A stretch of DNA of 64,000 bases from Cavenderia fasciculata (Eukaryota; Evosea; Eumycetozoa; Acytosteliales; Cavenderiaceae). The notes beneath the pieces are model-generated. The model was not told the DNA's origin, made no database searches, and saw only the letters and a program-made list of their open reading frames with translations. How positions within the stretch are numbered: position 1 is the first letter of the stretch; each line of letters opens with the position of its first letter. The position numbers and the translations under genes are program-made. Shown piece after piece: positions 14,768-32,602 of the stretch. The DNA is taken from contig NW_004457729.1 of the NCBI RefSeq assembly GCF_000203815.1, positions 3,596,674-3,660,673 of the forward strand. Direction: 5' to 3'.

Positions 14768-17700
14768 TTATACATGTATAAAGGTTTTTAGTTTTTCGAG
14801 TAGATCTTTCAATTGTTGGATACCTTCATTTGGTTGGGGCGATTGATTCTCGAGAATATTTAAATGATGCTTAGCCTTTTTCATTGAATCATCTACAATG
14901 GTTTGGATGTCACCAGCGTCCAATTGTTGAAGTCTTTGTTTAAGTTTGGAAACATCTTCAATTTGTTCTCTAAATTTGGCAGCAATATTGGAAACTGGGA
15001 AAAAATTATTAGAATGATCATTTTGTTGGTTGTAGGTGCATACATACTTTCTTTTTCCAATTCCTTGGTTTTGATGGGTATTTCTTTGTCTTGCTCTTGA
15101 GCTTCATTATATTTGGCTGTGATTTCGTCGTCTTCGACCCACATCATTTTGAATTCGGAATGGATGTGTAGAGAATATTTGCAACCACAATAAAAACACT
15201 CATCATAACGTATCATGAACATATTACGGAAGGTTCGACAATCCCTGATATTAAATGCAACATTTTTAATTGGGAGATAACATTTACATCCTTCATCACA
15301 CACCTCCTTTGAGTTGGGCCTGCAATCTGAAGACATGCAGACGGTCGAAACGCCTCCATTGGACCATTTTTCAGTGCTGGGCACCTTTCGAATCGCCTTT
15401 CCTTCGCTATTCAATTTACACTTTTGCTGTTTAAGCCAATCCTTTGATATTAAATGGCGGATTTGGGGAGCTTCAACGTCTTTAAAATCAGATAGTTTCG
15501 CCTCTGCAACCCCACAAGACGTATTTTTCTCCAACAGTTGATTGAACCAGTCAAGAAAAGCTTCTTTGAGTTCGACAAGCTTTTTCATTTGTGGAATATG
15601 GAATGGGTTTTCAATCTTGATTCTCTCGTAAATAAAATCCAGTGCCAGTTGGGCCTTGGATTCTAATTTTGTATCTGGAACCGAGAGCTTGCCAATTTTT
15701 TCGGCACCAAACTTATTACTTGGGTGAAGGGCCCTATTAAATTAAAAGTTAGTTATCAATTGGTGGGATTTAAAATTAGATCTAAATAAATACCAAGGAT
15801 TATCCATAAATAGACCAGGTCGATCTTTGACTCCATCCAACATTTCATTTAGGACATTTCTAACATTTGAAGCTTGGTTCAAGTTATCGCAAAATGTAAT
15901 GATTGTTGACACATTTTCCAATGCATCTCTCTTGAGATATGAAAATACATTTGAGATGGATTGGAGAGGTTCGAGGGTTTTTCTTGTCAATGCACCCGAT
16001 ACTACATAGATAAATCCATGTATTCTCTCGAGATTCGAGATCTCATTGAGAGTTGTCTTGATGTGCTCCTTGTCCTTGTCGGCTCCTGCAGTATCTAAAA
16101 ATCCTGGTGTGTCGATAAGGGTAATCGAAAATTGAAACTTGTTCTGATCGGAAAAGTACTCGATTCGGTAACGACAAACTTTTTGGGTTTTGCTCTTTCC
16201 AGGTACAGTTTCTTCATATTTTGTTAAACGAAGTGATTTTGGAGAGTCCATTTGGCCAGTCAAAATATTGAGAAAGAACTCAAGCAAAGTTGTCTTTCCA
16301 ACACCACTTCTCCCCATGAATATTAGGAAATAGTCTTTTTTTTTGTAGGGGGTTCCTCCAATTCCAAAACTTTACCAAAAAATTGCAACAGAGAATCTTT
16401 TCTAATCTTGTCAATGTAAACAAAATATTTGTACAATTGTTCATTTGAATAGTCAAATCTAATAAACTTCTCTTTTTGGTCTGCTGTCCAATCAGAGAGC
16501 TCTCTTTCATTTGAAATCGTATGTGAGTTACCCTTTTAAAAAAGAAAGTGAGTTAGGACCTTGTTAAAAACTTTTAAACTATTAATAATTGATAACATAC
16601 GTCTGTACGTGTGATAGTAGCTGGGTATCTCATTTCATTGCTGACCCACTCTCCATTGATGGATTTTACTTGATCCACATCCCCATTGCAATATGTCATT
16701 ATCCCAGATCCGTGTCGCTTCCCATTCAGACAATAACCAATATAAACGTCTCCATTTGTGTATGTGTATGTTCCTTTGTATGTTGGTACGCCACTTACAA
16801 TTGGGCCCAACCACGTTCCTTCTTTTGTGGTTGAGCTAGATATTCCAATCAGCATTTCCACGTTGGCTTTGTATTCTGTCAGAATATCCTGTGTATTGGA
16901 TACATCAAATCTAATTAAAATTTTAAAAGAGTAAGTAGACATAGATTACATTTAAAATACATCGATATTAACTTACTTGAGAATATTGTCGACTTTGTCT
17001 TTGAGCAATTTGACAGTGTCTTCATGTAATACTCTTAAACGTCGGATAAATTGGGAGACTTTGGTGTATAAAGTCTCAACATATGCAGATAGATTGTCAT
17101 CTTCGAGTATATGTTGAATGGTCTTTTTTGATTTGGATAAAACAGTCGTCATCTCTTCAATCTTTGAAATGTTTGCATGTATTTGATTGACTTTGGTTTG
17201 GTAGATATCAAAGTCAAGTTGAGCAAGGAGAGGATGTAGTTTAGAGGGCATTGGCAAAACAGATATTCGAATGGGAATTTTGTACTGTTTAGAGAGACCA
17301 GGGGTTCTAAGCAACCGAATAAATTCCTTGGCCTTTGCTGGTATGAGTTTTTTAAAGGCCTCGTTGTCTGGGTGCCCATCAATCGATCCATTAAACCACG
17401 CTTTTAAACTTGAGTCTGCAATGAGAGGCCCAATACTTGTGATAAACTGATCAAAATCTCCATTACAATATTCCTGCACCTGCCTGAGTACTGATTGCTC
17501 GCTAAAGTATATATAAATATTAGTAAATGGGTATTAGCTGATCTCTTGTGTTTTAGCAACATACTTGGATTCAAGAGATATGATCATCTTTACCCTTACA
17601 CCAATCTCGATTGATTGAACGTAATGTAAACCATACTGAGCTCTAAATTCATCCATGTCTTGTCTGATCTCTGAATGAGGTGATGGTGTCGAAGGCAGTG

Positions 17701-17932
17701 TTTTCTTTTCAGTTATGATTGTTGAAGTATAGATGATGGTTTGTTTCTTTTGGTCGCATATAACTTCAAGCAACGTAAAAGAATAGTTATATTCTTCGAT
17801 CGTTGGACAACAAGGAAGATACTCGATGCCCTTTTGAACAAATATGTCATTGCACTGCCTGTCTATCTCGCAGATATCGAATCCACTTCCTAACTCTTTA
17901 TCAAATCTAATGCTTGGGTTGAGTGTAATCAT
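14768..17932 (-). CDS. Multidomain GTPase A: N-terminal domain, helical, MORN, AIG1-like G domain, Cys/His
   Basis: Six exons on the minus strand: 17565-17932, 16977-17501, 16601-16910, 15794-16532, 15048-15733, 14768-14994, about 951 residues if one frame break is ignored. Residues 1-~195: domain with the motif YGLHYVQSIEIG, reminiscent of SNTX/MACPF-like domains that precede AIG1-like GTPases in some animals (low certainty). ~195-297: helical segment with ILEDDNLSAYVETL. ~298-401: MORN-like (YKGTYTYTNGDVYIGY, then GKRHGSG). ~402-648: G domain with P-loop GRSGVGKTT and G3 DTPGF. ~649-876: Cys/His cluster (STVCMSSDC, CDEGC, CFYCGC, HIH). C-terminal helix. A 9-base A run (T on plus, 16336-16344) between the linker and the P-loop puts the two halves of exon 4 in different frames; both sides match the paralogues, so a single-base indel, real or an assembly error, is likely. 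GTP hydrolysis and a role in defence are inferred from family only. Confidence 0.8.
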
Positions 17933-18256
17933 CCCAGACTATTGAATAAATATAAAGTATTACCAACTGTGAGCGATACAGTAATGATATAAATACAATG
18001 TTTTTAATTAATTTTTTTGTACCACCAATTTTTAAAACAATGGGGGGGGGTGGGTGATTTTGAAAAAACCTTTTCTCTTCAAAAAGATATTTTTCAACTA
18101 ATCTATTGAATTGAACATCATTTTAATTAATTTTTGGTTTCTTCTTATGGTGTAGCTTTCGATTGTTCATCTCATCACAAACAGCTCCTTTGATTTATTT
18201 TTTTGAAATCTCTTCATATAAAACTAGAGCACAGAGAATATAGGTTACAAGCAAAG
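17933..18256. promoter_or_regulatory. Shared divergent upstream region of GTPases A and B
   Basis: Only 324 bases separate the two divergent start codons. Seen: an oligo-T stretch before gene B (18198-18204), a G10 run near 18043-18052, and on the minus strand a donor/acceptor-like pair just upstream of the gene A ATG that could mark a 5'-UTR intron. Co-regulation of the pair is inferred from this arrangement. Confidence 0.45.
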
Positions 18257-21200
18257 ATGGATAAGGTCATTGTCAATATTCCTCATGACAACCCAGACAT
18301 GCTTGCTGAGTCAGACCTCGGGATGAGTCTACACTACGATCCCAACAACAGTCATAAAATCACAAAAAAACATAGGATATTCGACCTTCCTCCTATTACA
18401 CAGTAAGTTTGAGCTCAACCCTTACCTACCATTAATACATTTTCTTATTCTTTTCTTTTTCTTTCAGCTTTGTTGCTTCAGATGACACTTATTGCAGAGC
18501 GAAACCATTTGAAAACAACAATGAAATAACCTACATAGTGACAAGAACAAGAATCACAAGGTGTAGTCTAGATGAACCCACCCTTTCTCAACCCAACCCT
18601 CCCATTGAATCGGTTGGCGAATACTACATCAAGAAGATGGAGTTTAAAGCCTTGTTGGAGGTACATTTAACTTTAAAATCAGGGTAAGTACTCCTCTCAT
18701 TATATTTCTGAAACAATATTGTCTGACACTTAATTTAACAGGGACAAAGAATTAATAAAGAAAATTAGAAAGGAAACAAAATTAGAACATCACCTTGGTG
18801 TACTGTCTGACAAGCTAGAACAACACCTACAATTGGCCAAATTGAATGTGCTCGTAAGAAAAGGGTTCAAAGACCCGTTAGTTGGCCACCCAGTCACCCT
18901 AGAAATGTTAAAGTCATTCTTTAGTTTAAAAATAGACGAGGGCCACCTGTTAATGCCTGTAAAAATGGAGATTTCCGATGCACTGTCGCCTCTCAAAGTA
19001 GATAGTAAACAATTCTCGATTTTCAAAAGCAAAAAAGCCAAACTAGATTCATATTTACCAAGAATAGAATCAATGCTCAAGAAGTTATCGGATTATCGAG
19101 AAGAACTATCGGTAATATTGGAAGATGAGAATATGTCAAACTACATTGCTCCTCTCAACACTAAAGTTTCACAAGCTATTGGGCGTTTAAAATCCCTTAA
19201 ACAAGAGACAGAGTTGTTTGGGAAAGAAAGTTTCAAAAACATTGTAGAGTATGTCCATAAACAATTAAAATAATAATTATTATTTTCAATTATAATTTAC
19301 TTACTCAATTCTATCAGTAGAGAGATTACCGTCAAGGATACATTTTTAGATGAAGTTTTAAAAAAGATTTCAATTGCAATGGGAACAACGGAGACAACGA
19401 TTGTCGACAAGGGAAAATGGAAGGGAAAAACTATTTTGGATTTTAAAACAGATCCTACCACTCACATTCCAACACACCAAGGAATATTCACCTACCTAAA
19501 CAATGACGTATACAAAGGATATTGTCTGAATGGTAAAAGACATGGAAATGGAATAATGATATACCATCCTTGCAGTATTGATAAAATTAAATTGGTTGAA
19601 GGCGAGTGGAAAAGCGACGAGGTTAGCTATCCAGCAAAAATCACCTATGATGATGTATGTATCGATTGATTGTTTACAACAATATGTCTTGACCTAACCT
19701 TTTTTTTTATAGAAAACTGAAATGATTAGCAACAAAGCGGAATTGGACTCCTGGAAGGCAATGCGCCAAACTACATACCTCTCACAAAGTCTGGAAACAA
19801 GAACTATAGAAAGTGAAAAAACCACACAATTCAGAGTCAAAGTGGAAAAGATTAAAGACGAAACATTCAAGATTTTATATGGTCGCTTTAAAAAGTCTCT
19901 TTTCTCACATAGAAAACAATTCTTTGCTATGTTTTTAGGCGTAACGGGGTCTGGAAAGTCCACATTAGTGGAGTTTATTCTAAATATCTTGACAGGCCAA
20001 CTTGGGTCTCCACAAACACTTCGGGCAAAGGATCTAGAGGCAGCTGGCGTTGGAAAGAGCAAAACAGCCGAGGCATATCGGTATGACATCGAATATGTGG
20101 AAGATGACCTACTCATGTTCACATTAACACTAATCGATACACCAGGATTTGCAGATTCAAATGGAATAGATAAGGATAGGGGACACATAGAATCAATATT
20201 GAGCTCAGTCTCAAAGATTGAAAGACTGGACAATGTCACATACGTCGTTCCCATATCTCTTACCCGACAAACTCTGGAAACATTTAGTGTGTTATGTCAA
20301 GTATTTTCAATCCTGCCTATCCAGGCTTTTGATTGTGTTTCTACTGCAATCACATTTGGAGACAACAAAAATCAGGCATCTAACGTCCTGGATGTTTTGA
20401 ATGAAATGTTGCCAGGAATTAAAGACAAACCTGCTACTTTTATAAACAATCCTTGGTACGTACCAATTTCAAAATAATTAACATTGTTCCATTACTAACT
20501 ATAAAATTTAAAGGGCTCAACATCCAAACAATAGCTTTAAGGACAACCAGACAGAAAAATTTAATCTATCGGGAGCAGACAATTCCACTGATATCAACAT
20601 TAATGAAATTGCCAAAAAACTGGGATCATTTTTTGTGGAGAGGTACGAATCTCAAAAATCCTTTGAGTGCAAAGGAATGGTACAACTCAACAAACTCATT
20701 GTAACTCTTATGGAAGAACTTAAAAATATAAAAGAAACCTATGGTAAATTAAGCTCTTCTACTAAAAGCTTGGAGCTGATATCCAACTCCAAGGATTTGA
20801 ATCAATTGGCACACATCGCTGACAAAAATGCAATGGAAGAATACTTTAAAAAATCTGGATATGCTGTCAAGGATGGAAAACCAATGGCCAAAGTCATTGG
20901 TAATGAGCTTTGGCCAAATGGTGCTTACTCGACAGTGTGCCTAGCACCGGACTGTATCAAAGATGTATGCCACGAAGGTTGTGGTTTTTTGGGGTTCAAC
21001 TTTGACAATTGCCATGTTTTTAAAATGGATATTTGCCAAATATGCAAATGCCCTCGAAACCAACATGTCTACACCAAATTTAAAATCGGATGGATCGAAA
21101 ATGAGTCGATAGTCACCACTTTTTTGTCTATCCTAGACAAATCCATACAAATAGAAAAACTGTCCAACCAATATAATGCTGAAAGTATGTTACTACCATT

Positions 21201-21619
21201 TTTTTTTTTTAATATCCCCAATTTATTTACGTTACTAACTTATTTGTGATAAAAAAATAGTCAAAACCTATGGCGATCAGTACTCGCATCAACTAGAAAC
21301 ACTCAGACAACTAGAATCCAAATTCAAAGAGCTATCAGTCTTTGGCAATATCGACAAAATTCTTGATTGTTCACTTCAAACTCATAGACAGTTAGAAGCT
21401 GTACAGGCAATCGACGATGTCATCAAAAAGAAATATCTTACCGATGTTATCAGTAATCTCAAGTTGTTCATTGATACTATTAAAAACTCGGATGCACTCA
21501 AGAAAAGAATTGAAGGCGAAGTTTTGGAAATCACAGAACGAAGAAAAGAAAAAGTCTTGCAAATTAATCGCTGGATTGAAAAAGTAAATGCCCAACCCAA
21601 AACGACTGAGCAAATTTAA
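18257..21619 (+). CDS. Multidomain GTPase B: N-terminal domain, helical, MORN, AIG1-like G domain, Cys/His
   Basis: Seven exons: 18257-18402, 18468-18683, 18742-19248, 19321-19654, 19713-20455, 20514-21184, 21261-21619, giving 991 residues with no frame break. The order matches gene A: N-terminal domain (1-~200, with VGEYYIKKMEFKALLEVHL at the place of A's YGLHYV motif), helical segment with VILEDENMSNYIAPL, MORN-like segment (~290-401), G domain (~401-649; P-loop GVTGSGKSTL, G3 LIDTPGF, conserved TAITFGDN at the expected G4 position), Cys/His cluster (~649-872; STVCLAPDC, CHEGC, CQICKC, then H) and a C-terminal coiled coil. The ATG at 18257 is chosen because upstream in-frame codons lack an ATG. 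Intron phases from the MORN exon onward equal those in genes A and C. The TRAFAC GTPase fold is clear; the biological role is unknown. Confidence 0.88.
19950..20048 (+). repeat. 99-base segment identical to 25437-25535
   Basis: Starts just before the P-loop GKST codons of gene B and matches the same place in gene C base for base for 99 positions, although the flanking codons of the two genes differ often. It is best explained by recent gene conversion. Confidence 0.9.
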
Positions 21620-22275
21620 CAACCATTTCACCTAGAAATGTACAAAACATAATTATCATATTGCTGTAAATTAAATTACTAATCTAAAAATAATTAATTA
21701 TTAATTATTGAGGGAACTAAAAATATATATTGAAGAGACCAAAATGATTCGAATCATCACAAATTTAAGTGGCTACGAAAAAAAAACAAATATATTTGTT
21801 TGAATTATTATATTATTTTATTTTAAAACTAGAAAAAAAACATTATTATTAGTGTCTCTTCCTCTACCAATAATTGGTGATTATTAAATTAAATTATATT
21901 ATTATGGCCATGGGTCGCAATACCACCCACATTGATTAGGACTGCCAAGTCACTTTCTTAATTTTTTGTGATATCTACTTCTCAATCTTTATCACAGAAT
22001 AATTAAAACTATTATTATTTTGTTTAACATAAAAAAAGAATATGTTCAACTCCAATTGTTACTCTGTAGAATGATGATCATAATTTTTTTTTTTTTAATT
22101 GTTTTTAAATTTGGGAAGTTCAAAACAACGATCCAATAATAAATATCCTCCTAGTCTATTTCCGTCATCGACCCTATCGAGATATTTATTTTTTAGTAAC
22201 TTTTTTTTTTTTTGCTGAACATCATACCTTCATTAGATCGCTTCATTTTGTACCAATTCATTCTATGGTGATGGG
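21620..22275. other. Spacer between GTPases B and C, with oligo-T promoter element
   Basis: AT-rich. A 13-base T run at 22201-22213 lies about 60 bases upstream of the gene C start; such oligo(dT) tracts are typical of dictyostelid promoters. Nothing else is supported. Confidence 0.5.
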
Positions 22276-22339
22276 ATGGAGTCTCAAAGAAATAATAATA
22301 AATGTATTTCTAAGCATTGCTCATCGTCTAACGATCTAG
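22265..22339 (+). other. Overlapping upstream ORF at the start of GTPase C
   Basis: Two ATGs (22265 and 22271) lie 11 and 5 bases before the gene C start in a different frame and read 24 codons to a TAG inside the B-box codons. If the leader includes them, they would reduce initiation at 22276. Confidence 0.5.
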
Positions 22340-25300
22340 TTTATTGCCTTATGTGCAAATATACATTTTGCGAAGATCATTTTGAAGAATGCAAAACAGT
22401 CGATCATACATGTATAGATAAAAAAGATAGGGACATAATAGATTACCACTGCGATATCAAAGAAGCAGAATGGACGAGCAGGGACGCGAAACATAAGTTT
22501 ATTCAACTAGAGAATAACAACAACAATTGGATAATGGATTTAAAAGTAAAAGATGTATCTTCTCATCTCATTTCATTCTTTGGACCAACTGGTAGTGGTA
22601 TGTACATTTTATTCTATAGACCTATATCATTTTATCGAATCAACTTATTAATAACCAATTTATGTATAAATAGGAAAATCATTGATTATAAGATCGAGTA
22701 TACTAAAAAAGAATGGTTGTGAACAACATGAAATACCATTCGTAGGCAAAGATGACGGGCCATCCCAATCCACATCTTCAGATATCAACTATTATATATT
22801 CTCCGTTTTTAAAGATGCCGAATATCTGTTGGACTCTGAAGGAACTGGTGGAACACCTGACAACCAATTTTTGAAAGGTCAACCAGAAGAAAGGCTTCAT
22901 CACGTCGAAGAAGTTTATCCAAGACTTCTTCATCTCATCAGTGATCTGGTTGTCTATGTATTCAGCAACCCCAGAGAACATTCGACCATTGTATCGGCAT
23001 TATCAAAAATGGTCAGCCACGTTGAATCAAAAGTCATCAACAAGCCACACAAGCCTCATCTCTTGGTCATCTTCAACAACCAAAAAGAAAAAATTGACAA
23101 AGATAATGATTTTTTCCAATCCAAAGAATTCCTTGATGAGGGAGAAGATACAAAAATCATCAAATCACACTTTACAAGCTATAAATCAATCACCGTTCCA
23201 AACTCATCTGAAATGCCAACTTTGTTTATAGAGAAATTAAATTTGGTAATTGACGCATATAGTAGTAAAAAAACCAAGTTGGATACATTCATACCTCAAT
23301 TTACGGTTGGAGAAATAGTAGCACAATTAAATCAAAGCCAAGATAAATCGATAGATTATTTTATGTTATTGCAAGAGAAATCTCAAATCTATAAGGATTA
23401 TAAGAAGTCATTGGAAAACTCGTCAGGTACAACAGACTTGGAGAAACACCAAACGGCCATCGAACAAGTAAAGAAAAAAATAACATTTTCTACATCTCGA
23501 GATGATTTGGTTCAGGCCGAATATCTTATTTGGAATGGCAGATGTCAGGTAATCTGCAGTGATGGATTTCAATGCGATTTGATACTTGCAACACACGGAG
23601 ATTATCACCGATCAAGTAAATCAAGACAACAAAAATTGGAACCCAATAACTACAACTTTTTTAAGGAAATATTTTTCCCAAATAACCGAAAGTCATTCCA
23701 ACTTGAAGAAGCTATTGAATGGGCTGGTAAATTTACCGGTATGGCTATAGGCGAACCAAATTTGGTAAAATATTTCGACAATCTCAAACAACACAAAGAT
23801 TTAGATGATCTACTTTCAAAGTTGAAGGATTTTAAAACAAATATTCAAACAATGCTTGAAGACGAAGAATTTTTCATTTATGTGGAGGAACTAAACACAA
23901 AAGTACTACAAGCCATTGAAGCAGTTGAAAGTCATCAATTCAATCTATCTAATTTGATCAAACAATATGACAAAAGGTATGTCAACCAAAATTATATTTA
24001 CCTAGAACAAAAAATTGATTAATTTTTTTTTTACTTAAAACTACGAAATACCTAAACCAAGTCAATATATTTCCAAGGACACAATTTTGATGATGATTGG
24101 AGATATCCCATGTACAACAGACAAGGGAACGTGGACCGGTCCAAATATGGTCGATAAAATCTTTATCCCAAATGTTGAGGGAAAAGAGATTGCATCAACT
24201 AGTTTAGAGGTTGAAACAGATTCTACCACCTACACCCCAACATACAAAGGTACATACACCTACCTAAATAGAGACATTTACGAAGGATTTTGCCTGAATG
24301 GTAAGAGACATGGTCATGGAAAAATGACATTCCCAACTAGTAGCGATCAGGTAATATCGATTGAAGGCAATTGGAAAGAGGACGAAGTTAGCTATCCGAC
24401 AACCATCACCTATTCTGATGTACGTATCGATTGTATCAATGATGGGGGCATTCAATAACCCAAGTTTTTTTTCTACAGAGAACTGAATGGATTGAGGATC
24501 AAGTGAAACTGAATTTATGGAAAACAAGCCATGAATTCACAATCAAAGTAACCTCGAATCTTAAGAGAATAAACATGTTACTGGAGAATCTGGAGGAATT
24601 TCGAAAGGAAATCGAAACTCTTCTTGAAGATGAGGATATGTCAGGCTACATCGCACCCCTCCATACAAAGGTTTCACTGTTGATCGGGCAATTAAAGAAG
24701 CTCCATGCCGTAAATTTAAAGTCTTTTAACCAAATTTTAAAGTAAGTAAAGATATTGACTCTTTTTATTTACCCTAACTTACACTTATATTTCAACAGAA
24801 CAGAGATGGTTACTCATCATTATGATTTAGATGAATTGGAAAAAAAAAATTGCAATAACAATAGGACGATCACAAACAAAAACCGATCGGGGATTATGGA
24901 TTGGGCCGACCATAATAGATTCCAAAACAGATCCTCCTGTGCACATTCCAACATACATGGGAAGATACACCTACCCCAACGGCAACACCTACGTAGGGCT
25001 CTGCCTAAATGGTAAATGCCATGGAAATGGTACAATGAAATACCATTTAGGTAATGTCGATAAAATTAAATACATTGAGGGCGTATGGAAAGAAGACCAA
25101 GTTTCCTATCCAGCAACTATAATCTACTCTGATGTATGTATTGATTAAAAAATGATGGTGGCATTCATTAACCTAGTCTACTTTTTATAATTATAGGGAG
25201 CAATTGAAAAGATTGGGAGTCCAGAAGAGCTCGGCCAATGGAACGAAATTCGCCAAACTTTTTATAAATCACAAAGTCTACAAACTAAAACGATGGAATC

Positions 25301-27119
25301 TGATAGAACTACCCAATTCAGGGTCAGCGTGGATAGGATTAAAGATGAGACATTCCACTATTTATACAATCGCATCAAGGGGTCGCTTGACCCCCAGAGA
25401 AAACAATTCTTTGCAATTTTCATGGGTATAACCGGCTCTGGAAAGTCCACATTAGTGGAGTTTATTCTAAATATCTTGACAGGCCAACTTGGGTCTCCAC
25501 AAACACTTCGGGCAAAGGATCTAGAGGCAGCTGGCATTGGAAAAAGCAAAACCACCGAGGCGTATCGGTATGACATTGAATTTGTCATAGATGACAAACC
25601 CATGTTCACATTAACACTAATCGATACACCAGGATTTGCAGATACAAATGGAATAGATAAGGATAGAGCACACATCAAGTCAATACTGAGAGCTGTCTCA
25701 AAGATTGAAAGACTTGACAACGTTACATACGTGGTCCCTGTATCGCTTACCCGACAAACTCTGGAATCACTTAATGTTCTGTGCCAGGTATTTTCTATTC
25801 TTCCGGCCGAAGCTTTTTCATGTATATCGACTGCCATCACATTTGGAGACAACAGAGACCAGGCATCCAGTGTCTTGAATGTTCTGGACCAAATGTTGCC
25901 AGGAATAAAAGGCAAACCTGCCACTTTTATAAACAATCCTTGGTAAGTACAAAATATCCCCAATCATAAAATAAGCTTCTAACCCCATACATTTAGGGCC
26001 CAACACTCTGCAAATACCAACAAAGAGGTAAAGGCAGAAAGTCTCAATCTGACTGGTGTCGACAACACAAACGATCTCAACCTTAACATCAACGAAAAGG
26101 CAAAAGAGATTGGTATTTTTTTGGTCGAGAGGCTCGAATCTAAGCAATCTTTTGAATCAAAAGGAATGAATGTACTCAATAGCCTCATCGATACTCTGGT
26201 GACAGAGCTCGGGGATCTAACAGATATTTTCACCGTATATAACCATGCCAAAAATAATTTGGCTCTTATTTCATTAAATAATAACAAGGAATTCGATCGA
26301 TTGGTAACATCAACCGACAATAGCTCAATGGAGGAGTACTTTAAACAAAAGGGATATGCTATCAAGGATGGAAAACCGATGGCCAAAGTTATTGGCAATG
26401 AGCTATGGCCAGGTGGCGTTTACTCGACAATATGCCTAGCACCGGGATGTATCAAGGATGTATGTCAAGAAGGTTGTAGCTATTTTGGTGTCAACTTTGA
26501 TAACTGTCACTTATTTAACGAGCCCGAAACAGTTTGTCAAGTTTGTAAATGCCCCAAAAACCAACATGTCTATACCAAGTTCCGAACAAAATGGATTGAA
26601 AACGAGTCGATTGTTGAAAACTTTTACGCAATAGTAAAAAAAACAAAGGAATCCCAGGATCTCTCCAAACAATATAACGAAGAAAGTATGATATCATATT
26701 ATAAATTATTATAATATTTCATCTATATTAATAACCTTTTTTTTTTTGACCAAAAAGTATCAACATACCAAAAGATGTACGAAAAACAACTAAGTAAATT
26801 CAAAAAATTGGAATCCATTTTAAAAAAACTTTCGATCTTTGGAAACATCCAAACTCTACTCGAATGTGCACTCGAAACATACAGAGTTCAACTCGAAGCT
26901 CTTAAGCCAATCAACGATGAAAAAACAACAAAACATATCACAGACATCATGACTAGTTTCGAGTCGTTTATTAAAACCGTCAAGGACTCTGGGACACCAA
27001 AGAAAAGTATTCGCAAAGAGTTGGCTGAAATCGAAAAAAGAAGGAACGAAAAAATTGGTCTTCTAAGTAGTTGGATTAAAAAAATAAATGGCCAACAAAA
27101 ATCAACTGGACCAGGTTAA
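22276..27119 (+). CDS. Multidomain double GTPase C: B-box, GBP-like G domain, (helical-MORN)x2, AIG1-like G domain, Cys/His
   Basis: Eight exons: 22276-22597, 22674-23976, 24062-24419, 24479-24741, 24799-25133, 25197-25942, 25997-26685, 26758-27119, about 1458 residues. Order: B-box-type zinc finger (~10-50; CISKHC, CLMCKYTFCEDH); GBP-like G domain (~95-290; P-loop GPTGSGKS split by the first intron, G3 LLDSEGTGG, a LLVIFNNQ strand where GBPs have TLRD); a small Cys segment; helical unit and MORN; second helical unit and MORN; AIG1-like G domain (P-loop GITGSGKST, DTPGF); Cys/His cluster (STICLAPGC, CQVCKC); C-terminal coiled coil. Thus two different GTPase domains in one chain. In exon 5 a 10-base A run (24840-24849) joins YDLDELEKK to IAITIGRS only after a one-base shift, so one indel or sequencing error is present there. 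GTP-dependent assembly is the usual activity of both families; the function here is unproved. Confidence 0.82.
23776..25133 (+). repeat. Tandem duplication of a helical + MORN unit inside GTPase C
   Basis: The first unit (helical end of exon 2, then exon 3) and the second (exons 4 and 5) share the motifs MLEDEEFFIYVEELNTKV / LLEDEDMSGYIAPLHTKV and YLNRDIYEGFCLNGKRHGHG / YPNGNTYVGLCLNGKCHGNG. Genes A and B have a single copy. The second unit is bounded by phase-0 introns, so its gain keeps the frame. Confidence 0.8.
25437..25535 (+). repeat. 99-base segment identical to 19950-20048
   Basis: The gene C copy of the converted P-loop segment; identity stops at GGC|AT versus GGC|GT. Confidence 0.9.
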
Positions 27120-27558
27120 TATCCATTCCACCCGAGAAATGTAGTAATTACAATTTACAAATTAGATAACATAATCCAAAATGAAAAAAAAATAAACAAG
27201 GTTAACCAAATTAAAGGGAATATTATATAAATGATTCAATGGGTCATTTTCTGAACCATCAATAGAGGTTGTGGATATTCCAAAATTAATATTTGTTACA
27301 ATCGACGCTAGTCGGGACAGATTACCTTGTCCTCGCTATTCTGATCATCACCAAGCCAAGAAAAACATATCTCTTTCGATTGGACTGAAATGAATAATGC
27401 AGTCATGATTTGTCAGATAACAGTCCTCAATCCAACATCATAGCTGTTTTCTTTCTGTATCTCCAAATCTTAAGTGCCATAATGAAATAATAATAAAGCA
27501 AGACCAAAGTTTGTTGTTGTATAATAATGATAATAATTTTGTTTTATATTTGTGAACT
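27120..27558. other. Convergent spacer after GTPase C
   Basis: Two 3' ends meet here. AT-rich, with one slightly less AT-rich patch around 27300-27350. No RNA gene or coding frame is supported. Confidence 0.5.
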
Positions 27559-27979
27559 CTATTTGCCTTCGTATGATTGTAAATGTTTGTACAACTTGTT
27601 ACCATAACCATACTTGTCTAATAACAATAAATGATCTCTCTTGTACATTGGTAAAGGTACATCATCCTCTGTCCATCTAAAGATTTAGTGAAACAATTTG
27701 CAAATTAGTATATTGTCATCATTGTAGATATCAAGGATCTATAATTTGCAATGATTGCTGTTATTGTTGCAATCCTATAGTCTATCTCATCCTCTATCCT
27801 ATCACATACTTTCTTGGTTTTGGTAAACGTTTAGAGAGACAAGTATTATGAAGACGAAGGAAATCCTCTACCGATTTTTGCATAGTGAATCTCTTCTTTT
27901 GTCCCATTCTCCATGTGTGTGATTGCTTGATTGGCTTGTTTACAAGACCACTGAATAATGCTCTAGTTGCTGCAAACAT
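27559..27979 (-). CDS. Small basic protein, possibly mitochondrial
   Basis: Two exons (27810-27979, 27559-27676), 95 residues; family not recognised. The N-terminus MFAATRALFSGLVNKPIKQS has Arg/Lys, Ser and hydrophobic residues with no acid, as in mitochondrial targeting peptides. The middle is basic (RMGQKKRFTMQK), and after the junction the chain continues WTEDDVPLPMYKRDH to HLQSYEGK. The AA|A phase and good GTATGT donor support the splice. Size and charge would fit an accessory subunit of a mitochondrial complex or ribosome, but no motif decides this. Confidence 0.65.
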
Positions 27980-28869
27980 CTCTTTCTTTCTCTATAATCT
28001 ATATATCTGTACACAAGTTAACTGAAACTAAAACAATCATGTAGAATTACGCTCATATGATCAGATGCTGTGATCGTGGATGTGTCGTTTTTTTTTTTTT
28101 TTTTTTTTCTAGCTCTTTATATTATATATATGTAGGTCTTATCATATTATATATTCACATATATAATCAGATAGATTGATATTGTTTTATACTTATCACA
28201 ATAGCTTTAAATAATGGTTCATGATTGAATTAATGATTGGGATTTTAATTTATTATTATTATTCATTTAGACATTGAGCATGACGATAATGTATCATGAT
28301 CGTGGTGGTATGATGTCCGTCTGTCCAATGTCACCATGACCCACCACCAACAAACAAAAGAGAGAACCCGCAGTTGGACAGAGCGATATTAAAGCGCATG
28401 CATTGCACCAAAAGAAGGGAGGGATTCAACAAAAAAAATTCGAAAAACCAAAGCATGATAGAAACAACAAAAGACGTTGTTATTTTTCACAATTTAATTT
28501 ATATTTCCTCCTCTCTGTCTGTCTATCTATCTTATATATCTCTGTGTCTCTTTTACCTGTGGATAAAAGGGGGCTACATACAAAAGTATAAGAGTAAAAC
28601 CATCGATCGATTTGTGTATTTTTAATATTTATTTATTTATTTACATCATCAACGCCCGCTTATATTATAAATCAATCATTATCATTATCTTTTTCATTCA
28701 TTCTCACACTCTCACACAGCAAGAGTAATTTTAACTCTTCAACTACGCGCACACATTAATACATTAATTAGATCAGATACTATTATAAAGAATAGAATAG
28801 AATAGAGTAAAGGAAAAGGACAGACAGTTTAACAGTCTACGACTACCACCATATACACTTGCTATCAAT
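27980..28869. other. Divergent intergenic region
   Basis: Upstream DNA of both the small basic protein and the LMBR1-like gene. It holds a 21-base T run (28088-28108), short TA blocks (28119-28131), (TTTA)n near 28624-28643 and AGAAT repeats near 28790-28808. Only short frames without family features occur. Confidence 0.5.
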
Positions 28870-30697
28870 ATGGTCAACGTCTTTTTAATTATTGTAGCTA
28901 TCGTTGTCGTAGCTCTCATTATATTAGCAAGTCTCTATCTTATCGTTTACTTCCAACATCCAGATGATAAGAATGTTGCTTGGCTACCGAAAATCATTGT
29001 CGTAAGTAGATAAAGGACAACAAAGAACAACAAGACAACAAGACAGATTAGATAGTGAACAATAATTAACAGATTTATTATTATTTAAGGTTGCTGGTCT
29101 AACACTAGCAGCGGTTAGTATCCTTATGCTGCCACTAGATGTAGCTAATAAAGGAGGAGAAGGAGGATTCCCGATGGACACTATTTGGCTTGTAATCTAT
29201 ATTGCCATAGCCATATTTTCAGTCATCATCGTTCCATTTGCAATGTTTTATTATGAATCTGAAGAAGCAGAGTATGTACAAGTAGATAGACACAGATATA
29301 GATATATACAAAAATGTTAACATATATATATATCTTGAATTTAAAATTAGTGGTACCAATAATCAATTTGCATCAGCATTTAAGGGAACCCTTTTCCTTT
29401 TGTTTGCATTTGCAGTGATTACCGTCCTCTTATGGTTATTCATTGGTATTGCTGAAATCCCAACTGTTCTTGTCAACCAACAATTTTATGTAGCCAACTT
29501 AAACACTGCCGATTTCTCAGAGACTGGTAAATGGTTCAAGTTTAAGAATATCACATATGAAGGTACTCTTGAAGGTTATCAAGGATGGGTTAAAGTAAAT
29601 ATATCAAAAGAAAAAGATAATAATAATGTATTATTTATTTATTAATATTTCTTTTGTTTTTTTTTTAATTTTTTAGGAAACAAGAGATACAGGACAATAT
29701 TTAGTATTCCGTGTTAGTATTTTCTTGTTTATTATTACAATGGTATCATTCTTTGGATGGTTAATGTTTATTATTTTCGGAGGTATTGGTTTGGCCGCTC
29801 TGCCATTTGATATGATTACCGACTTTGGCAATCGTCCACAACGTATATCGTACGACAAGTATTTAGAGATCAAGGCAAAGATTGGAGAGAGAGCAACCCA
29901 ACTCGTCACTATTGGCAAGGAGATCCAAACCAAGTATTCTGGTGGCGGTGTTTTCAACATGAGCAGAAAGGAGCGTCGTAACTATAACCGTTACCGTGCT
30001 GCAGTGTTCGAGTTGGAAGATGATTATGAGAAGCTCAAGATCTCTTATCAACGTCAAGGAGGCAAGGTTATCTTCTACTGGGCTCAGTTCTTTGGTGGTT
30101 TCATTGCTGCCGGTTGCTCTGTCGCATGGGTGCTTCACGACATTATCTACATGTGGACTCAACCAGAACCATTCCATCCATTCCTCAACAACTTGGTGAT
30201 TTCACTCGACAATGCCTGGGGTTTCTTGGGTACCATTTGTTACGGTCTTCTCTCCTTTTATCTATTGTTCTGTTGTGTCAAGGGTAACTTTAAGTTTGGT
30301 TTAAGAATTTTCTTTTTATTCCCTGTTCATCCAATGCGGTAAATATTAAAAATATTAAAACAAAAAAGTAAAAGTATAATACTAATAATAATTAATTTTC
30401 TATCTTTTTAGTGTTGGAGCAACAATGATGAATGCATTCTTATTTAATGTTGGTTTAATTCTTATTTGTTGTGTTAGTATTACACAATTCTGTACTATGG
30501 CCTTTTCACAATACACATCGGTGACTGCTATCAATTCTTTGTTCTCCAATGCAGTTCGTTACATCAAGGGGTTAAAGTGGTTCTGGGTCATCTACATCAT
30601 TGCCATCTTTGTCATGAGTATCCTTGCTCTTATCATGCTCTTTGTATTTAAATCAAAGGATAAAAAGAAAAAGAATCAACCATTTAAATTGGCCTAA
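28870..30697 (+). CDS. LMBR1-like multi-pass membrane protein
   Basis: Five exons: 28870-29001, 29090-29271, 29351-29594, 29677-30338, 30412-30697, giving 501 residues. About nine hydrophobic segments: residues 5-28, ~45-60, ~70-95, ~120-145, ~200-230, ~330-360, ~370-400, ~425-450 and ~465-490. The conserved LMBR1 features are a long cytosolic loop with basic and coiled-coil residues ([31 protein letters not shown]), the preceding [13 protein letters not shown] segment and the [21 protein letters not shown] motif across the last junction. LMBR1-family proteins are lipocalin-receptor or cobalamin-transport-like integral membrane proteins of plasma membrane or lysosome; which applies here cannot be told. 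The C-terminus is basic (KDKKKKNQ). The family call is good, the precise orthologue is not known. Confidence 0.82.
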
Positions 30698-31010
30698 GAA
30701 AAACAATCAATTCACACATACACAAAACAATCTTAATCAATTTAACTAATAATAATAATAATAATAATTAATAATTTAAATAATAATAATCCTATTTTAC
30801 GCGTACCCATTCATTTAAATTATAATAACAATAACAATAATAATAATTAATAACGATCAATATTTCTCCCCTCTACTTTAATTTTCAAAATGTCAATAAT
30901 AATCTATACATCAAAGTAATAATAATAATATTTTTAATAAATAAATAATAAATTCCGAATATCAAAAATAACAATTATTTACAATTACTTTTATTTATTT
31001 ACAAGTTAAA
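30698..31010. other. Convergent spacer before GTPase D
   Basis: AT-rich with AAT trinucleotide runs (30747-30768, 30830-30845). Likely poly(A) addition region of two convergent genes; nothing else seen. Confidence 0.5.
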
Positions 31011-32602
31011 TTAACTTTGTGGAAATCCGATGCTCTGATTTGCATTATTAGCATATTCCATTTTCTTCTTTTCTTTAAGTTCTTTAGAATATTGACCCAA
31101 AAGCATTATCCCATTAAATGATCCACCTCCTATAAACTCAAATTCACCTTGCCATTGAGTTGCGTCGTCGTGTTGATGATACGTGCCATGTGTTGATAAT
31201 ACAAGTTTACATTGTTGATCTGAATCATTCTTTGATTGGCACTTGAGTGATTTTAAGATAAGGTAGTCTGTCGTTGCCAATTCTTCGATACTAGTGTCAG
31301 GTGAAAGATATTTTTTGGCATGTTCGACAGCCTCTATCAATCTCTCTCTATGCTTTGCGTTATATATTGTCGATAGTTGGTCCCATTTCTCTTTGTACTG
31401 CGCGTATATTACAGTATCTTCTTTATCCTCCATTACTGAAAAGAGATCATTGACATTTGCACCGTATTGATTCATCTTTCTGATAATTTCAATGGTGGTG
31501 GTACATTTGGCCTGATCACTTTCTCCACCAATATCGTTAAAATATTTAATGATTAATTTCAACTGTTGAATGAATTCAAAAGGATGGGTACCTGCATTTG
31601 GGACGAAAATAGAATGGTGACTGAGGAAACATGATTTGATGATTTCCTTTTTAGCCTCCATTTCTTTGTTTACCTCGTTTTCGTCACAAGTGTATGCACT
31701 AGCTTTAAAATAATCAACTTCTGAAATGTTTAATTGCTTGTTAAAGATGAGTAAAAGGTGTGGCTTGTATGAATTATTGGCGGCTTTTGATATGACTTGG
31801 CTGGGCATTTCCAAGAGATCTTTGAAAAATGTGTCTTGTTCTTGAGCGTTGTGAAACACATAGATGATAATCTTGCTGATCATATGCAACAGTCTCGGGT
31901 AAAAGACATTGACGTGGGTCTCTTTCACTGGAGTGGGAACGGGAACATCGGAATCATTGGTAAAGTGATTAGTGTCTGTTCCATGAGTGCCTTCACAGTC
32001 TAGAAAGGCACCAAAATTAGTTTGATACAAGTTGATGTCCGATGACATTGATTCACATGAATTTGTATTTCGTTTTGATAATGGTACTCCACTAGTACAT
32101 CCATAATTATTCAACTTTAATATACTTGCAAGTAATGCTGATTTTCCTATATATATATGTGATAGATGATTGGTTAGTTTAGGTAATTTGAGTTGGAAAA
32201 AAGACCACCTATAGGATACATACCTACTCCAGTTGGGCCAACAAAAGAGTACAAGTTGATATAGAATGGTTCGCTTTGTTGGCTCATTTGAAACTCTTTA
32301 TTATGATATACCAATTTGATGTATTTGTGGTCGTTATCTTGAAGTATTTGTGCTTTCTTGTTTTGAAGTCTTTGTGCTTTCTTGTTTTGATCATCATTGG
32401 AGGATGTGTAGTCTTTTAAGATATCGAGTATCTCTGGTATATTTGTTTCGACTTTGTGACCTGTACCTTCTTTTGAACATTCATCATGTTCTTTACAAAA
32501 TTGGAGGAGTTCACAATCATAACAGAAACAGTAAGCTTCCATCGGACACTGTGAACATTTGAACCTTGGTTGATGAACATTATTTGAAAGTCTTGGTTCC
32601 AT
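31011..32602 (-). CDS. GTPase D: stand-alone B-box + GBP-like G domain
   Basis: Two exons on the minus strand (32224-32602, 31011-32146), 504 residues, frame intact. It is a shorter relative of the N-terminal half of gene C: B-box-like Cys/His cluster (CSQCPMEAYCFCYDC, FCKEHDEC), a Gln/Lys helix with two copies of a QNKKAQ-type unit, P-loop GPTGVGKS split by an intron at the same codon and phase as in gene C, G3 LDCEGTHG and the LLLIFNKQ strand. The C-terminal ~150 residues share the KCQ..CKLVLSTHGTYH motif with gene C's CQVICSDGFQCDLILATHGDYH, then end without helical, MORN or second G domains. The P-loop and D-x-E-G motif place it near GBP/atlastin-type GTPases. Whether it works alone or with A-C is unknown. 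Confidence 0.85.

What the first reader, a model, noticed from the sequence alone, without database searches (positions are those of the whole stretch)
14768..32602. Cluster of four related multidomain GTPase genes (A-D)
Three large genes (A minus, B and C plus) lie side by side, and a fourth (D, minus) follows after two unrelated genes. A, B and C share a core: helical segment, MORN-like segment, AIG1/septin-like G domain, Cys/His cluster, coiled coil. C and D share a B-box plus a GBP-like G domain. So C is a hinge protein with two unlike GTPase domains joined by MORN units. AIG1/GIMAP- and GBP-type GTPases act in cell-autonomous defence in animals and plants; a dictyostelid counterpart with this layout would be a good candidate for intracellular defence against ingested bacteria. 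The cluster and domains are seen; the role is inference.
Basis: partly seen in the sequence, partly recalled or inferred. Interest (0 to 1): 0.85.

Follow-up and report, generated by a model that had tools for sequence, protein, structure and literature searches.

The report
Amoeba immune-type GTPases with perforin-like ends
A social amoeba carries a cluster of four genes built from two kinds of molecular switch known from animal immunity, some with an end that resembles a pore-forming protein, so they are candidates for attacking bacteria inside the cell, although nobody has tested this.

Summary
The cluster is real. A, B and C share one core: helical segment, MORN-like segment, AIG1-like G domain, Cys/His module, helical tail. 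C also carries, at its front, the G domain of D. By profile comparison the first G domain is nearest AIG1-type (prob 95.7) and the second nearest GBP (95.2). Neither reaches the Pfam AIG1, septin or GBP cut-offs, and the second lacks the GBP 'RD' motif, so the names hold as kinship, not membership.

First, A and its relatives E and F begin with a region whose only Pfam match is MACPF/perforin (just below cut-off in E, weaker in F and A; none in B, which is homologous there). Profile searches within this genome agree in both directions, for A and E only. C has a D-like GTPase unit instead. Second, some relatives of the C/D G domain carry patatin phospholipase and RING-like fingers, and one frame joins a true GBP domain to the D-type module.

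A and C each have one frame break, at their longest homopolymer. B and C share a 99-base conversion tract. The defence role is inference.

The parts
14768..17932 (-). Gene A: MACPF-like start, helical segment, MORN, AIG1-like G domain, Cys/His module, helical tail; 6 exons by my model
   Evidence: Exon model; alignments A1, A3, A5
17565..17752 (-). Gene A, MACPF-like stretch with RAQYGLHYVQSIEIG
   Evidence: PF01823 13.3 bits, E 0.09, below cut-off 21.5; best-ranked gene among 929 ORFs for an own-genome MACPF profile
16676..16729 (-). Gene A, MORN unit
   Evidence: PF02493 24.8 bits, cut-off 22.5
16336..16344 (-). Frame break of gene A at a 9-base homopolymer, shortly before the P-loop
15794..16335 (-). 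Gene A, AIG1-like G domain
   Evidence: PF01926 26.9 bits (over 21.9), PF00735 septin 25.3 (below 26.2); alignment A1
15048..15733 (-). Gene A, end of G domain and Cys/His module
   Evidence: Alignment A3
18257..21619 (+). Gene B: start homologous to the MACPF-like start of E/F, helical, MORN-like, AIG1-like G domain, Cys/His module, helical tail; 7 exons, open throughout
   Evidence: Exon model
18257..18683 (+). Gene B, start homologous to that of E and F; itself no Pfam match
   Evidence: Alignment; Pfam none at E<=10
19318..19654 (+). Gene B, MORN-like exon
   Evidence: Alignment with the MORN units of A and C; not listed by PF02493 at E<=1
19713..20455 (+). Gene B, AIG1-like G domain (GVTGSGKS, SKT, DTPG, TFGD, INN)
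20514..21184 (+). Gene B, end of G domain and Cys/His module
22276..27119 (+). Gene C: B-box-like cluster, GBP-like G domain, Cys/His patch, helix-MORN twice, AIG1-like G domain, Cys/His module, tail; 8 exons
   Evidence: Exon model
22276..22420 (+). Gene C, B-box-like Cys/His cluster (by spacing only)
   Evidence: Sequence; no Pfam B-box match at E<=1
22574..23350 (+). Gene C, GBP-like (family Y) G domain, ends approximate; P-loop split by an intron at the same place as in D
24279..24338 (+). Gene C, first MORN unit
   Evidence: PF02493 24.3 bits
24840..24849 (+). Frame break of gene C at a 10-base homopolymer
25197..25942 (+). Gene C, AIG1-like G domain
   Evidence: 76% identical to B; PF01926 22.9 bits, over cut-off
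25997..26685 (+). Gene C, end of G domain and Cys/His module
19950..20048 (+). 99 bases of B identical to C 25437-25535, over the P-loop and following region: gene-conversion tract
   Evidence: 0 of 2000 codon shuffles reach 99 bases
31011..32602 (-). Gene D: B-box-like cluster, GBP-like (family Y) G domain, Cys/His patch; 2 exons, open

Best explanation
A, B and C are large GTPases without a sign of a membrane helix, of an AIG1-like family. In A, E and F (and by homology B) the front end is a divergent MACPF/perforin-like region, followed by a helical segment and a MORN-like segment. In C this front end has been replaced by a D-type unit: a Cys/His-rich N-terminus and a GBP-like GTPase. D belongs to a second family (Y) of about twenty places in the genome, some of whose longer members add a RING-like finger and a patatin phospholipase.

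Proposed mechanism (inferred): GTP loading makes the G domains dimerise, and the helical tail and MORN segment assemble the proteins on an internal membrane such as a damaged phagosome. Assembly brings the membrane-attacking end to work: the MACPF-like end in A/B, and patatin in Y relatives recruited through the GBP-like domain that C shares with D. C would act as the adaptor that couples the two GTPase families.

Shown by sequence: domain order, kinship, fusion, gene conversion, and the existence of patatin relatives. Moderately supported: MACPF ancestry. Inferred: GTP switching, assembly, membrane target, pore or lipase action, and defence.
For: Gene models and shared core. Relatives: 8 places match the B G domain, B itself included; 24 places at E<=1 match the C GBP-like exon, of which 20 are neither C, D nor helical segments of B and C. 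AIG1 kinship: prob 95.7, score 62.2 against a best of 26.6 in 20 shuffles. GBP kinship: prob 95.2, score 62.0 against 20.1. MACPF is the only Pfam family at E<=10 for 3 of 4 N-terminal regions, and E appears in the genome-wide PF01823 list (16.9 bits, below cut-off). An own-genome MACPF profile ranks A exon 1 and E exon 1 as the top two genes among 929 ORFs (E 3.3e-4 for the full A exon, 0.012 for E; same ranks when no stop is read through). In reverse, 4 of 10 MACPF proteins come directly below the profile's own family. hhalign score 29.6 against a best of 17.0 in 40 shuffles. Patatin is over cut-off in 3 of 9 scanned Y relatives, and 4 of 20 patatin places genome-wide lie in frames that the Y G domain also matches, one of them weakly (E 0.24). 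GBP and the D-type module share one 314-aa frame. Gene conversion between B and C. Highest 19-residue Kyte-Doolittle window of A-D is 1.62. In D. discoideum the single GBP restricts intracellular L. pneumophila (PMC12040241, passages).
Against: No Pfam AIG1 or GBP match in the window. The AIG1 model itself over-reaches: it rings in 14 of 14 bacterial control genomes, 8 over cut-off, and two of the 9 places over cut-off here read, by eye, as EngA- and Era-like. Two of four AIG1 references did not match the X profile (prob 3.3, 0.9), and Y matches EngA nearly as well as GBP (92.3). MACPF is below its cut-off in all members and absent in B; F ranks only 17th (E 3.5) in the own-genome MACPF search; the PDB profile search found nothing; hhalign probability is only 10%. 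The MACPF signature (recalled) is worn: its Thr is lost in A, E and F, and GG is kept only in E. C and D themselves have no patatin and no RING. The frame breaks in A and C may mean decay. The same GBP study found no effect on M. marinum, and one D. discoideum patatin-family gene, of unknown relation to these, is listed as lowered with P. aeruginosa (PMC2474670, passage). No relatives outside this genome were found in three scans (the two bacterial loci read as EF-G-like). No expression, localisation or fold data.
Confidence: 0.45

Rival explanations
1. Ordinary membrane-traffic or cytoskeletal GTPases: septin/AIG1-like scaffolds that shape internal membranes, with MORN as lipid contact. The MACPF-like and patatin resemblances are remains without lytic function.
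For: Septin is the best PDB profile match for the A/B/C G domain (CDC10, E 2.9e-4), and the septin Pfam score of A lies just under cut-off (25.3 against 26.2). D. discoideum GBP also affects cell migration (PMC12040241, passages). Of five patatin or patatin-like ends read by eye, L016, L017 and L018 lack the nucleophile serine position.
Against: Tandem family, gene conversion, expansion of Y to about twenty places, and coupling to patatin with GTSTG and DGG kept in L022 and L025 are more usual for conflict genes (general knowledge).
Confidence: 0.3
2. Self/non-self recognition or regulated cell death in the amoeba, like fungal patatin-NLR systems, rather than killing of bacteria.
For: Fungal PLP-1 joins a P-loop switch to patatin and kills cells in the presence of an incompatible partner (PMC12881547, passages). 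Some family Y members have the same logic with a GTPase. Conversion and expansion fit.
Against: C and D carry no patatin. No polymorphism data between strains were available.
Confidence: 0.12
3. Decaying paralogues: A and C are pseudogenes and only B and D are expressed.
For: One frame break each in A and C. F on another contig is also broken inside its G domain.
Against: Both breaks sit at the longest homopolymer of the gene, a common place for sequencing slips. The other exons are open with GT-AG introns. Protein is conserved on both sides of each break.
Confidence: 0.13

Closest known systems
AIG1/GIMAP (IAN) GTPases
   Same: G1 GxxxxGKS/T, G2 SxT, G3 DTPG, G4 TFGD/TFCD and a G5/IAN-like [KR]PxxF[IML][DN]N occur in order in A, B and C (by eye; motifs as defined in PMC7053062, passages). 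Profile nearest to the best AIG1 hit of this genome.
   Different: No PF04548 match. A and B are about 950-990 aa, with MACPF-like, MORN and Cys/His parts.
Septins
   Same: Sub-threshold PF00735 and the best PDB profile match.
   Different: PF00735 cut-off not met; G4 is TFxD; MORN and MACPF-like parts are not septin parts (recalled).
Guanylate-binding proteins (GBP)
   Same: D[TSC]EG at G3 in 9 of 12 Y sequences; profile prob 95.2. One frame joins a true GBP domain to the D-type module.
   Different: G4 is N[KNRQ] instead of RD. PF02263 not met. D. discoideum GBP is predicted to have a signal peptide and a TM helix (PMC8565484, passages).
MACPF/perforin proteins
   Same: Sub-threshold PF01823 at the signature in A, E, F; reciprocal profile support for A and E.
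   Different: Short, worn signature; joined to a GTPase. Cut-off not met, no match in B or in PDB.
Fungal patatin-NLR proteins such as PLP-1
   Same: A nucleotide switch joined to patatin, in relatives of D (PMC12881547, passages).
   Different: The switch is a GTPase, not NB-ARC. C and D lack patatin.

Membership tests
AIG1/GIMAP GTPase (A, B, C second half) | PF04548 match over the curated cut-off | tested here: not met
   Not listed at E<=1 for A2, B, C2; genome-wide list of 14 places has none in the window, though the model is lax (14 of 14 bacterial controls ring)
AIG1/GIMAP GTPase (A, B, C second half) | G1, G2 SxTx, G3 DxPG, G4 TxGD/TxCD, G5/IAN in order (definition from PMC7053062) | tested here: met
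   Alignment A1 read by eye; definition from passages
AIG1/GIMAP GTPase (A, B, C second half) | Conserved box between G3 and G4 | tested here: inconclusive
   LTRxTLE resembles the RFxxTxEE end of the box, by eye only
AIG1/GIMAP GTPase (A, B, C second half) | Closest in profile to AIG1 domains | tested here: met
   Prob 95.7 and 95.6 with L053 and L008 (L008 itself sub-threshold); 3.3 and 0.9 with two other AIG1 hits; GBP 3.9, EngA 4.4, Era 0.4, family Y 87.7
AIG1/GIMAP GTPase (A, B, C second half) | Coiled coil (GIMAP definition of PMC7053062) | not tested
   Tail looks helical; no predictor run
Septin (A, B, C second half) | PF00735 over cut-off | tested here: not met
   A 25.3, B 21.0, C 17.7 bits, cut-off 26.2
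GBP (C first half, D) | PF02263 over cut-off | tested here: not met
   No match at E<=1; 17 genome places, none in the window
GBP (C first half, D) | RD at G4 (recalled as a GBP feature) | tested here: not met
   RD present in the 6 own-genome GBP frames that reach that region (L061-L064, L066, L027); N[KNRQ] in 11 of 12 Y sequences by script and FNKK by eye in the twelfth
GBP (C first half, D) | Closest in profile to GBP | tested here: met
   Prob 95.2; but EngA 92.3, family X 83.5 and one AIG1 hit 78.2
MACPF (start of A, B) | PF01823 over cut-off | tested here: not met
   E 20.7, F 15.7, A 13.3 bits, B none; cut-off 21.5
MACPF (start of A, B) | YGTH[FY]..GG signature region (recalled) | tested here: inconclusive
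   Aligned at the signature, but Thr lost and GG only in E
MACPF (start of A, B) | Reciprocal profile match with MACPF proteins of the same genome | tested here: met
   A and E rank first among 929 ORFs, F 17th, B not among the rows shown; reverse search puts 4 of 10 MACPF proteins directly below its own family
MACPF (start of A, B) | MACPF/CDC fold with membrane-inserting regions | not testable with these tools
   Structure prediction switched off
MORN repeat | PF02493 over cut-off | tested here: met
   Exons of A and C; protein-level scores below cut-off; B, E, F not over cut-off
B-box zinc finger (C, D) | Pfam B-box match | tested here: not met
   None at E<=1
Patatin-bearing GTPase family (C, D) | Patatin domain in the same protein | tested here: not met
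   No patatin match in C or D; present in relatives

The most novel reading that the evidence does not exclude
GTPase-gated perforins: a family of intracellular proteins in which an AIG1-like GTPase controls a built-in MACPF pore, working beside a second, GBP-like GTPase family that controls a patatin lipase, with gene C as the physical bridge. This would be a two-armed intracellular membrane-attack system of an amoeba.
Probability: 0.22. Interest if true: 0.92.

Novelty: new variant of a known kind. Interest (0 to 1): 0.68.

Why it matters
GIMAP- and GBP-type GTPases serve cell-autonomous defence in animals, but how they arose is open. An amoeba in which the same two switch types are wired to membrane-attacking domains, and to each other in one protein, would suggest that GTPase-controlled membrane attack is older than animals. 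Dictyostelids can be knocked out and fed or infected in the laboratory, so the idea can be tested directly.

Tried and rejected
The PDB profile of the N-terminal region gave no match at E<=10. Relatives outside the genome: viral contigs gave none for either G domain. Genome contigs, scanned with the X G domain only, gave two Mesoaciditoga loci that read by eye as EF-G-like translation factors, noise. PADLOC, five window exons given: the B G-domain exon matched six models, best LeoBC (E 4.9e-9, residues 32-161), which I take as shared P-loop/G-domain similarity, not membership; the B Cys/His exon matched JetA at 13.6 bits; the other three gave nothing. The best PDB match of the C/D profile was SMG9 (E 0.0067), over profile positions 114-180 around the P-loop. 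L008 alone found no GTPase in PDB at E<=1. A resemblance of the N-terminal and helical part to the stonefish-cytolysin type of MACPF proteins came from memory; it is an untested lead, and a literature search for it found nothing.

Literature, all in the CC-licensed PMC library only, listings capped: AIG1/Dictyostelium/GTPase/GIMAP (15 of 40 papers seen), Dictyostelium/MORN/AIG1/B-box (2 papers), Dictyostelium/guanylate-binding protein/bacteria (15 of 22), patatin/Dictyostelium/RING/GTPase domain (12 of 69), stonustoxin/GTPase/MACPF, MACPF/Dictyostelium/GTPase, MACPF/AIG1 (1 paper; its passages treat the two as separate enriched domains), patatin/Dictyostelium (15 of 31), species (10 of 16). 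No title or abstract start in those listings describes these proteins. Papers were seen as passages (PMC8565484, PMC7053062, PMC2474670, PMC12040241, PMC12881547, PMC12373286, PMC4334915); none was read whole.

Full report
Source. The window lies at C5:3596674-3660673 of a 30,995,898-base, 21-contig genome. Size and composition fit Cavenderia (Dictyostelium) fasciculata: 31 Mb, 25 supercontigs, 66.2% A+T in a table of PMC4334915 (passages); the window is 35.05% G+C. The species is an inference.

Gene models. I built spliced models with a small dynamic-programming gene finder and corrected them by hand. A is on the minus strand (14768-17932, 6 exons), B plus (18257-21619, 7), C plus (22276-27119, 8), D minus (31011-32602, 2). 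Each runs from ATG to TAA, and all 19 introns are GT-AG. B and D are open. A and C each contain one frame break, at a 9-base run (16336-16344) and a 10-base run (24840-24849); those are the longest runs in the coding sequence of each gene, and the protein on both sides aligns with B. Between C and D there is one clear gene, LMBR1-type (E 3.2e-16), and beyond D a PfkB-type kinase (E 4.5e-57).

Family X (A, B, second half of C). Pfam gives MMR_HSR1 over cut-off for A and C and under it for B (19.6 against 21.9); septin scores are 25.3, 21.0 and 17.7 bits against a cut-off of 26.2; AIG1 is not listed at E<=1. The genome-wide AIG1 search lists 14 places, 9 over cut-off, none in the window. That model is lax: it rings in 14 of 14 bacterial control genomes, 8 over cut-off, and L055 and L058 among the hits read, by eye, as EngA- and Era-like. 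The motif set of the AIG1 domain as defined in PMC7053062 (passages) is there in order: GVTGSGKS, SKT, DTPG, a stretch LTRxTLE that may be the conserved box, TFGD or TFCD, and [KR]PxxF[IML][DN]N (by eye). In hhalign runs the X profile (A, B, C, E and the C4 gene) scores 62.2 (prob 95.7) with L053, the best AIG1 hit of this genome, and 62.6 (95.6) with L008, a sub-threshold one; 23.4 (3.3) and 19.1 (0.9) with two other AIG1 hits; 25.8 (3.9) with GBP; 24.1 (4.4) with EngA; 16.8 (0.4) with Era; and 48.7 (87.7) with family Y. Twenty column shuffles of each target reached at most 26.6. X is therefore AIG1-like, not a Pfam AIG1 member.

Relatives of X in the genome: of 8 places matched by the B G domain, B, C and A account for three; a tandem pair on C14 (E, and F in two pieces) has the same order of parts; a C4 gene (28% identity) lacks the P-loop lysine (GPKSGGTT), so it is probably a pseudo-GTPase; and C10:209116 is weak (E 6.4e-4). 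F is interrupted inside its G domain.

The start of X proteins. Before the helical segment, E, F and A give exactly one Pfam family at E<=10: MACPF. E, given without its first exon, has 20.7 bits (E 4.9e-4, cut-off 21.5), F 15.7 (E 0.017), A 13.3 (E 0.09); B gives none. The genome-wide MACPF search lists 28 places at E<=1, 26 over cut-off, and the last listed is E (16.9 bits, below cut-off, E 0.07); 1 of 14 bacterial controls rings. I aligned ten MACPF proteins of this genome and searched 929 distinct ORFs of at least 60 aa from the window and fetched loci (the ten MACPF loci left out). The first four rows are A exon 1 (three overlapping copies) and E exon 1 (E 0.012); F ranks 17th (E 3.5), and B is not among the rows shown. 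Repeating this without reading through any stop gave the same top four. In reverse, the X N-terminal profile lists its own family first and then MACPF_L076, L077, L078 and L072 (E 0.006-0.05), with the others mixed among noise. hhalign between the two alignments scores 29.6, over 42 columns at the MACPF signature; 40 shuffles reach at most 17.0 and the reversed alignment 15.8, but the program's probability is only 10%. PDB gave nothing. The signature is worn: FGLYYIHKIELGG in E, FGFHYIGKIEFGA in F, YGLHYVQSIEIGV in A. I put the chance of a true MACPF ancestry at about 0.7, and of pore-forming ability much lower.

C as a fusion. C lacks that start. Instead it has a D-type unit: a Cys/His-rich N-terminus, a GBP-like G domain whose P-loop is split by an intron at the same place as in D, and a Cys/His patch. 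The join is visible: near the end of the C exon, query residues 376-419 match the helical segment of B (41%, E 0.008) and residues 364-425 match C's own second helical segment (39%, E 0.013). The helix-MORN unit is present twice in C. The first MORN unit is nearest that of A (57%), the second nearest that of B (58%). B and C share 99 identical bases over the P-loop region, in an exon that is otherwise 58-93% identical per 60 bases; 0 of 2000 codon shuffles give such a run. This points to recent gene conversion.

Family Y (first half of C, D). The C exon matches 24 places at E<=1: itself, D, two helical segments of B and C, and 20 others, some of which may be pieces of one gene. The D exon matches 17, itself included. 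Of 17 frames read, nine were given to Pfam. Three carry patatin over cut-off (E 8.1e-25, 2.6e-22, 1.7e-7), three have sub-threshold RING-type matches, one a sub-threshold Hsp20-like match, and four none of these. L022 and L025 keep GTSTG and DGG; L016, L017 and L018 have lost the serine position (by eye). A genome-wide patatin search lists 20 places, four in frames that Y also matches, one of those weakly (E 0.24). GBP proper is a separate set: PF02263 lists 17 places, none in the window, and rings in 0 of 14 controls. Yet one 314-aa frame on C10 holds the second half of a GBP domain (E 8.9e-7, with VLRD) followed by the D-type module, so the two families exchange parts. By hhalign, Y scores 62.0 (prob 95.2) with GBP, 49.4 (92.3) with EngA, 46.6 (83.5) with X, 40.2 (78.2) with one AIG1 hit, 30.9 (25.9) with Era and 27.6 (12.9) with the best AIG1. 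Y is nearest GBP but not sharply. Its G4 is N[KNRQ] (11 of 12 by script, the twelfth by eye), where six of six GBP frames that reach the region have RD. G3 is D[TSC]EG in 9 of 12.

How it most likely works. Steps shown: domain order, kinship and fusion. Steps inferred: GTP-driven dimerisation, membrane assembly through helical tail and MORN, attack by the MACPF-like end or recruitment of patatin relatives, and a target such as a damaged or bacteria-bearing phagosome. Support for the defence role is circumstantial: expansion, conversion, effector-type relatives, and the antimicrobial action of the single D. discoideum GBP on L. pneumophila (not on M. marinum) (PMC12040241, passages; PMC8565484, passages). 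Fungal PLP-1 gives the precedent of a nucleotide switch joined to patatin (PMC12881547, passages). One D. discoideum patatin-family gene, of unknown relation to these, is listed as lowered with P. aeruginosa (PMC2474670, passage).

Novelty. The parts are known; these combinations were not described in any title or abstract start of the listings named in Tried and rejected, which cover only CC-licensed PMC papers and were capped. I rate it a new variant of a known kind. The boldest reading, GTPase-gated perforins bridged to GTPase-gated lipases, is not excluded (probability 0.22).

Noticed in passing
G000:C10:528000-541600 (L019, L021, L023, L026, L027): Dense cluster of family Y places with one frame joining a true GBP domain to the D-type Cys/His module, and a frame with patatin and a weak Y match at its edge.
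   Followed up: partly
G000, PF02263 list: About ten PF02263 loci outside the window (some may be atlastin-type), whereas D. discoideum is reported to have one GBP (PMC8565484, PMC12040241): a possible lineage expansion.
   Followed up: no
G000, PF01823 list: 26 MACPF places over cut-off, many in neighbouring pairs on C3, C18, C14 and C13.
   Followed up: no
L007 (G000:C4:1343161-1344508): Divergent family X gene with G domain and Cys/His module but no P-loop lysine: a likely pseudo-GTPase.
   Followed up: partly
L014 (G000:C3:2393312-2394247): Family Y relative with an Hsp20-like stretch (sub-threshold) before its RING-like finger and, by eye, a worn patatin-like end.
   Followed up: no
window:19950-20048 and 25437-25535: 99-base identical tract between B and C over the GTP-binding core: gene conversion.
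   Followed up: yes
window:8082-11411: Large plus-strand frame with BRCT and AAA/Rad17-type Pfam matches, as in replication factor C large subunit (recalled).
   Followed up: no
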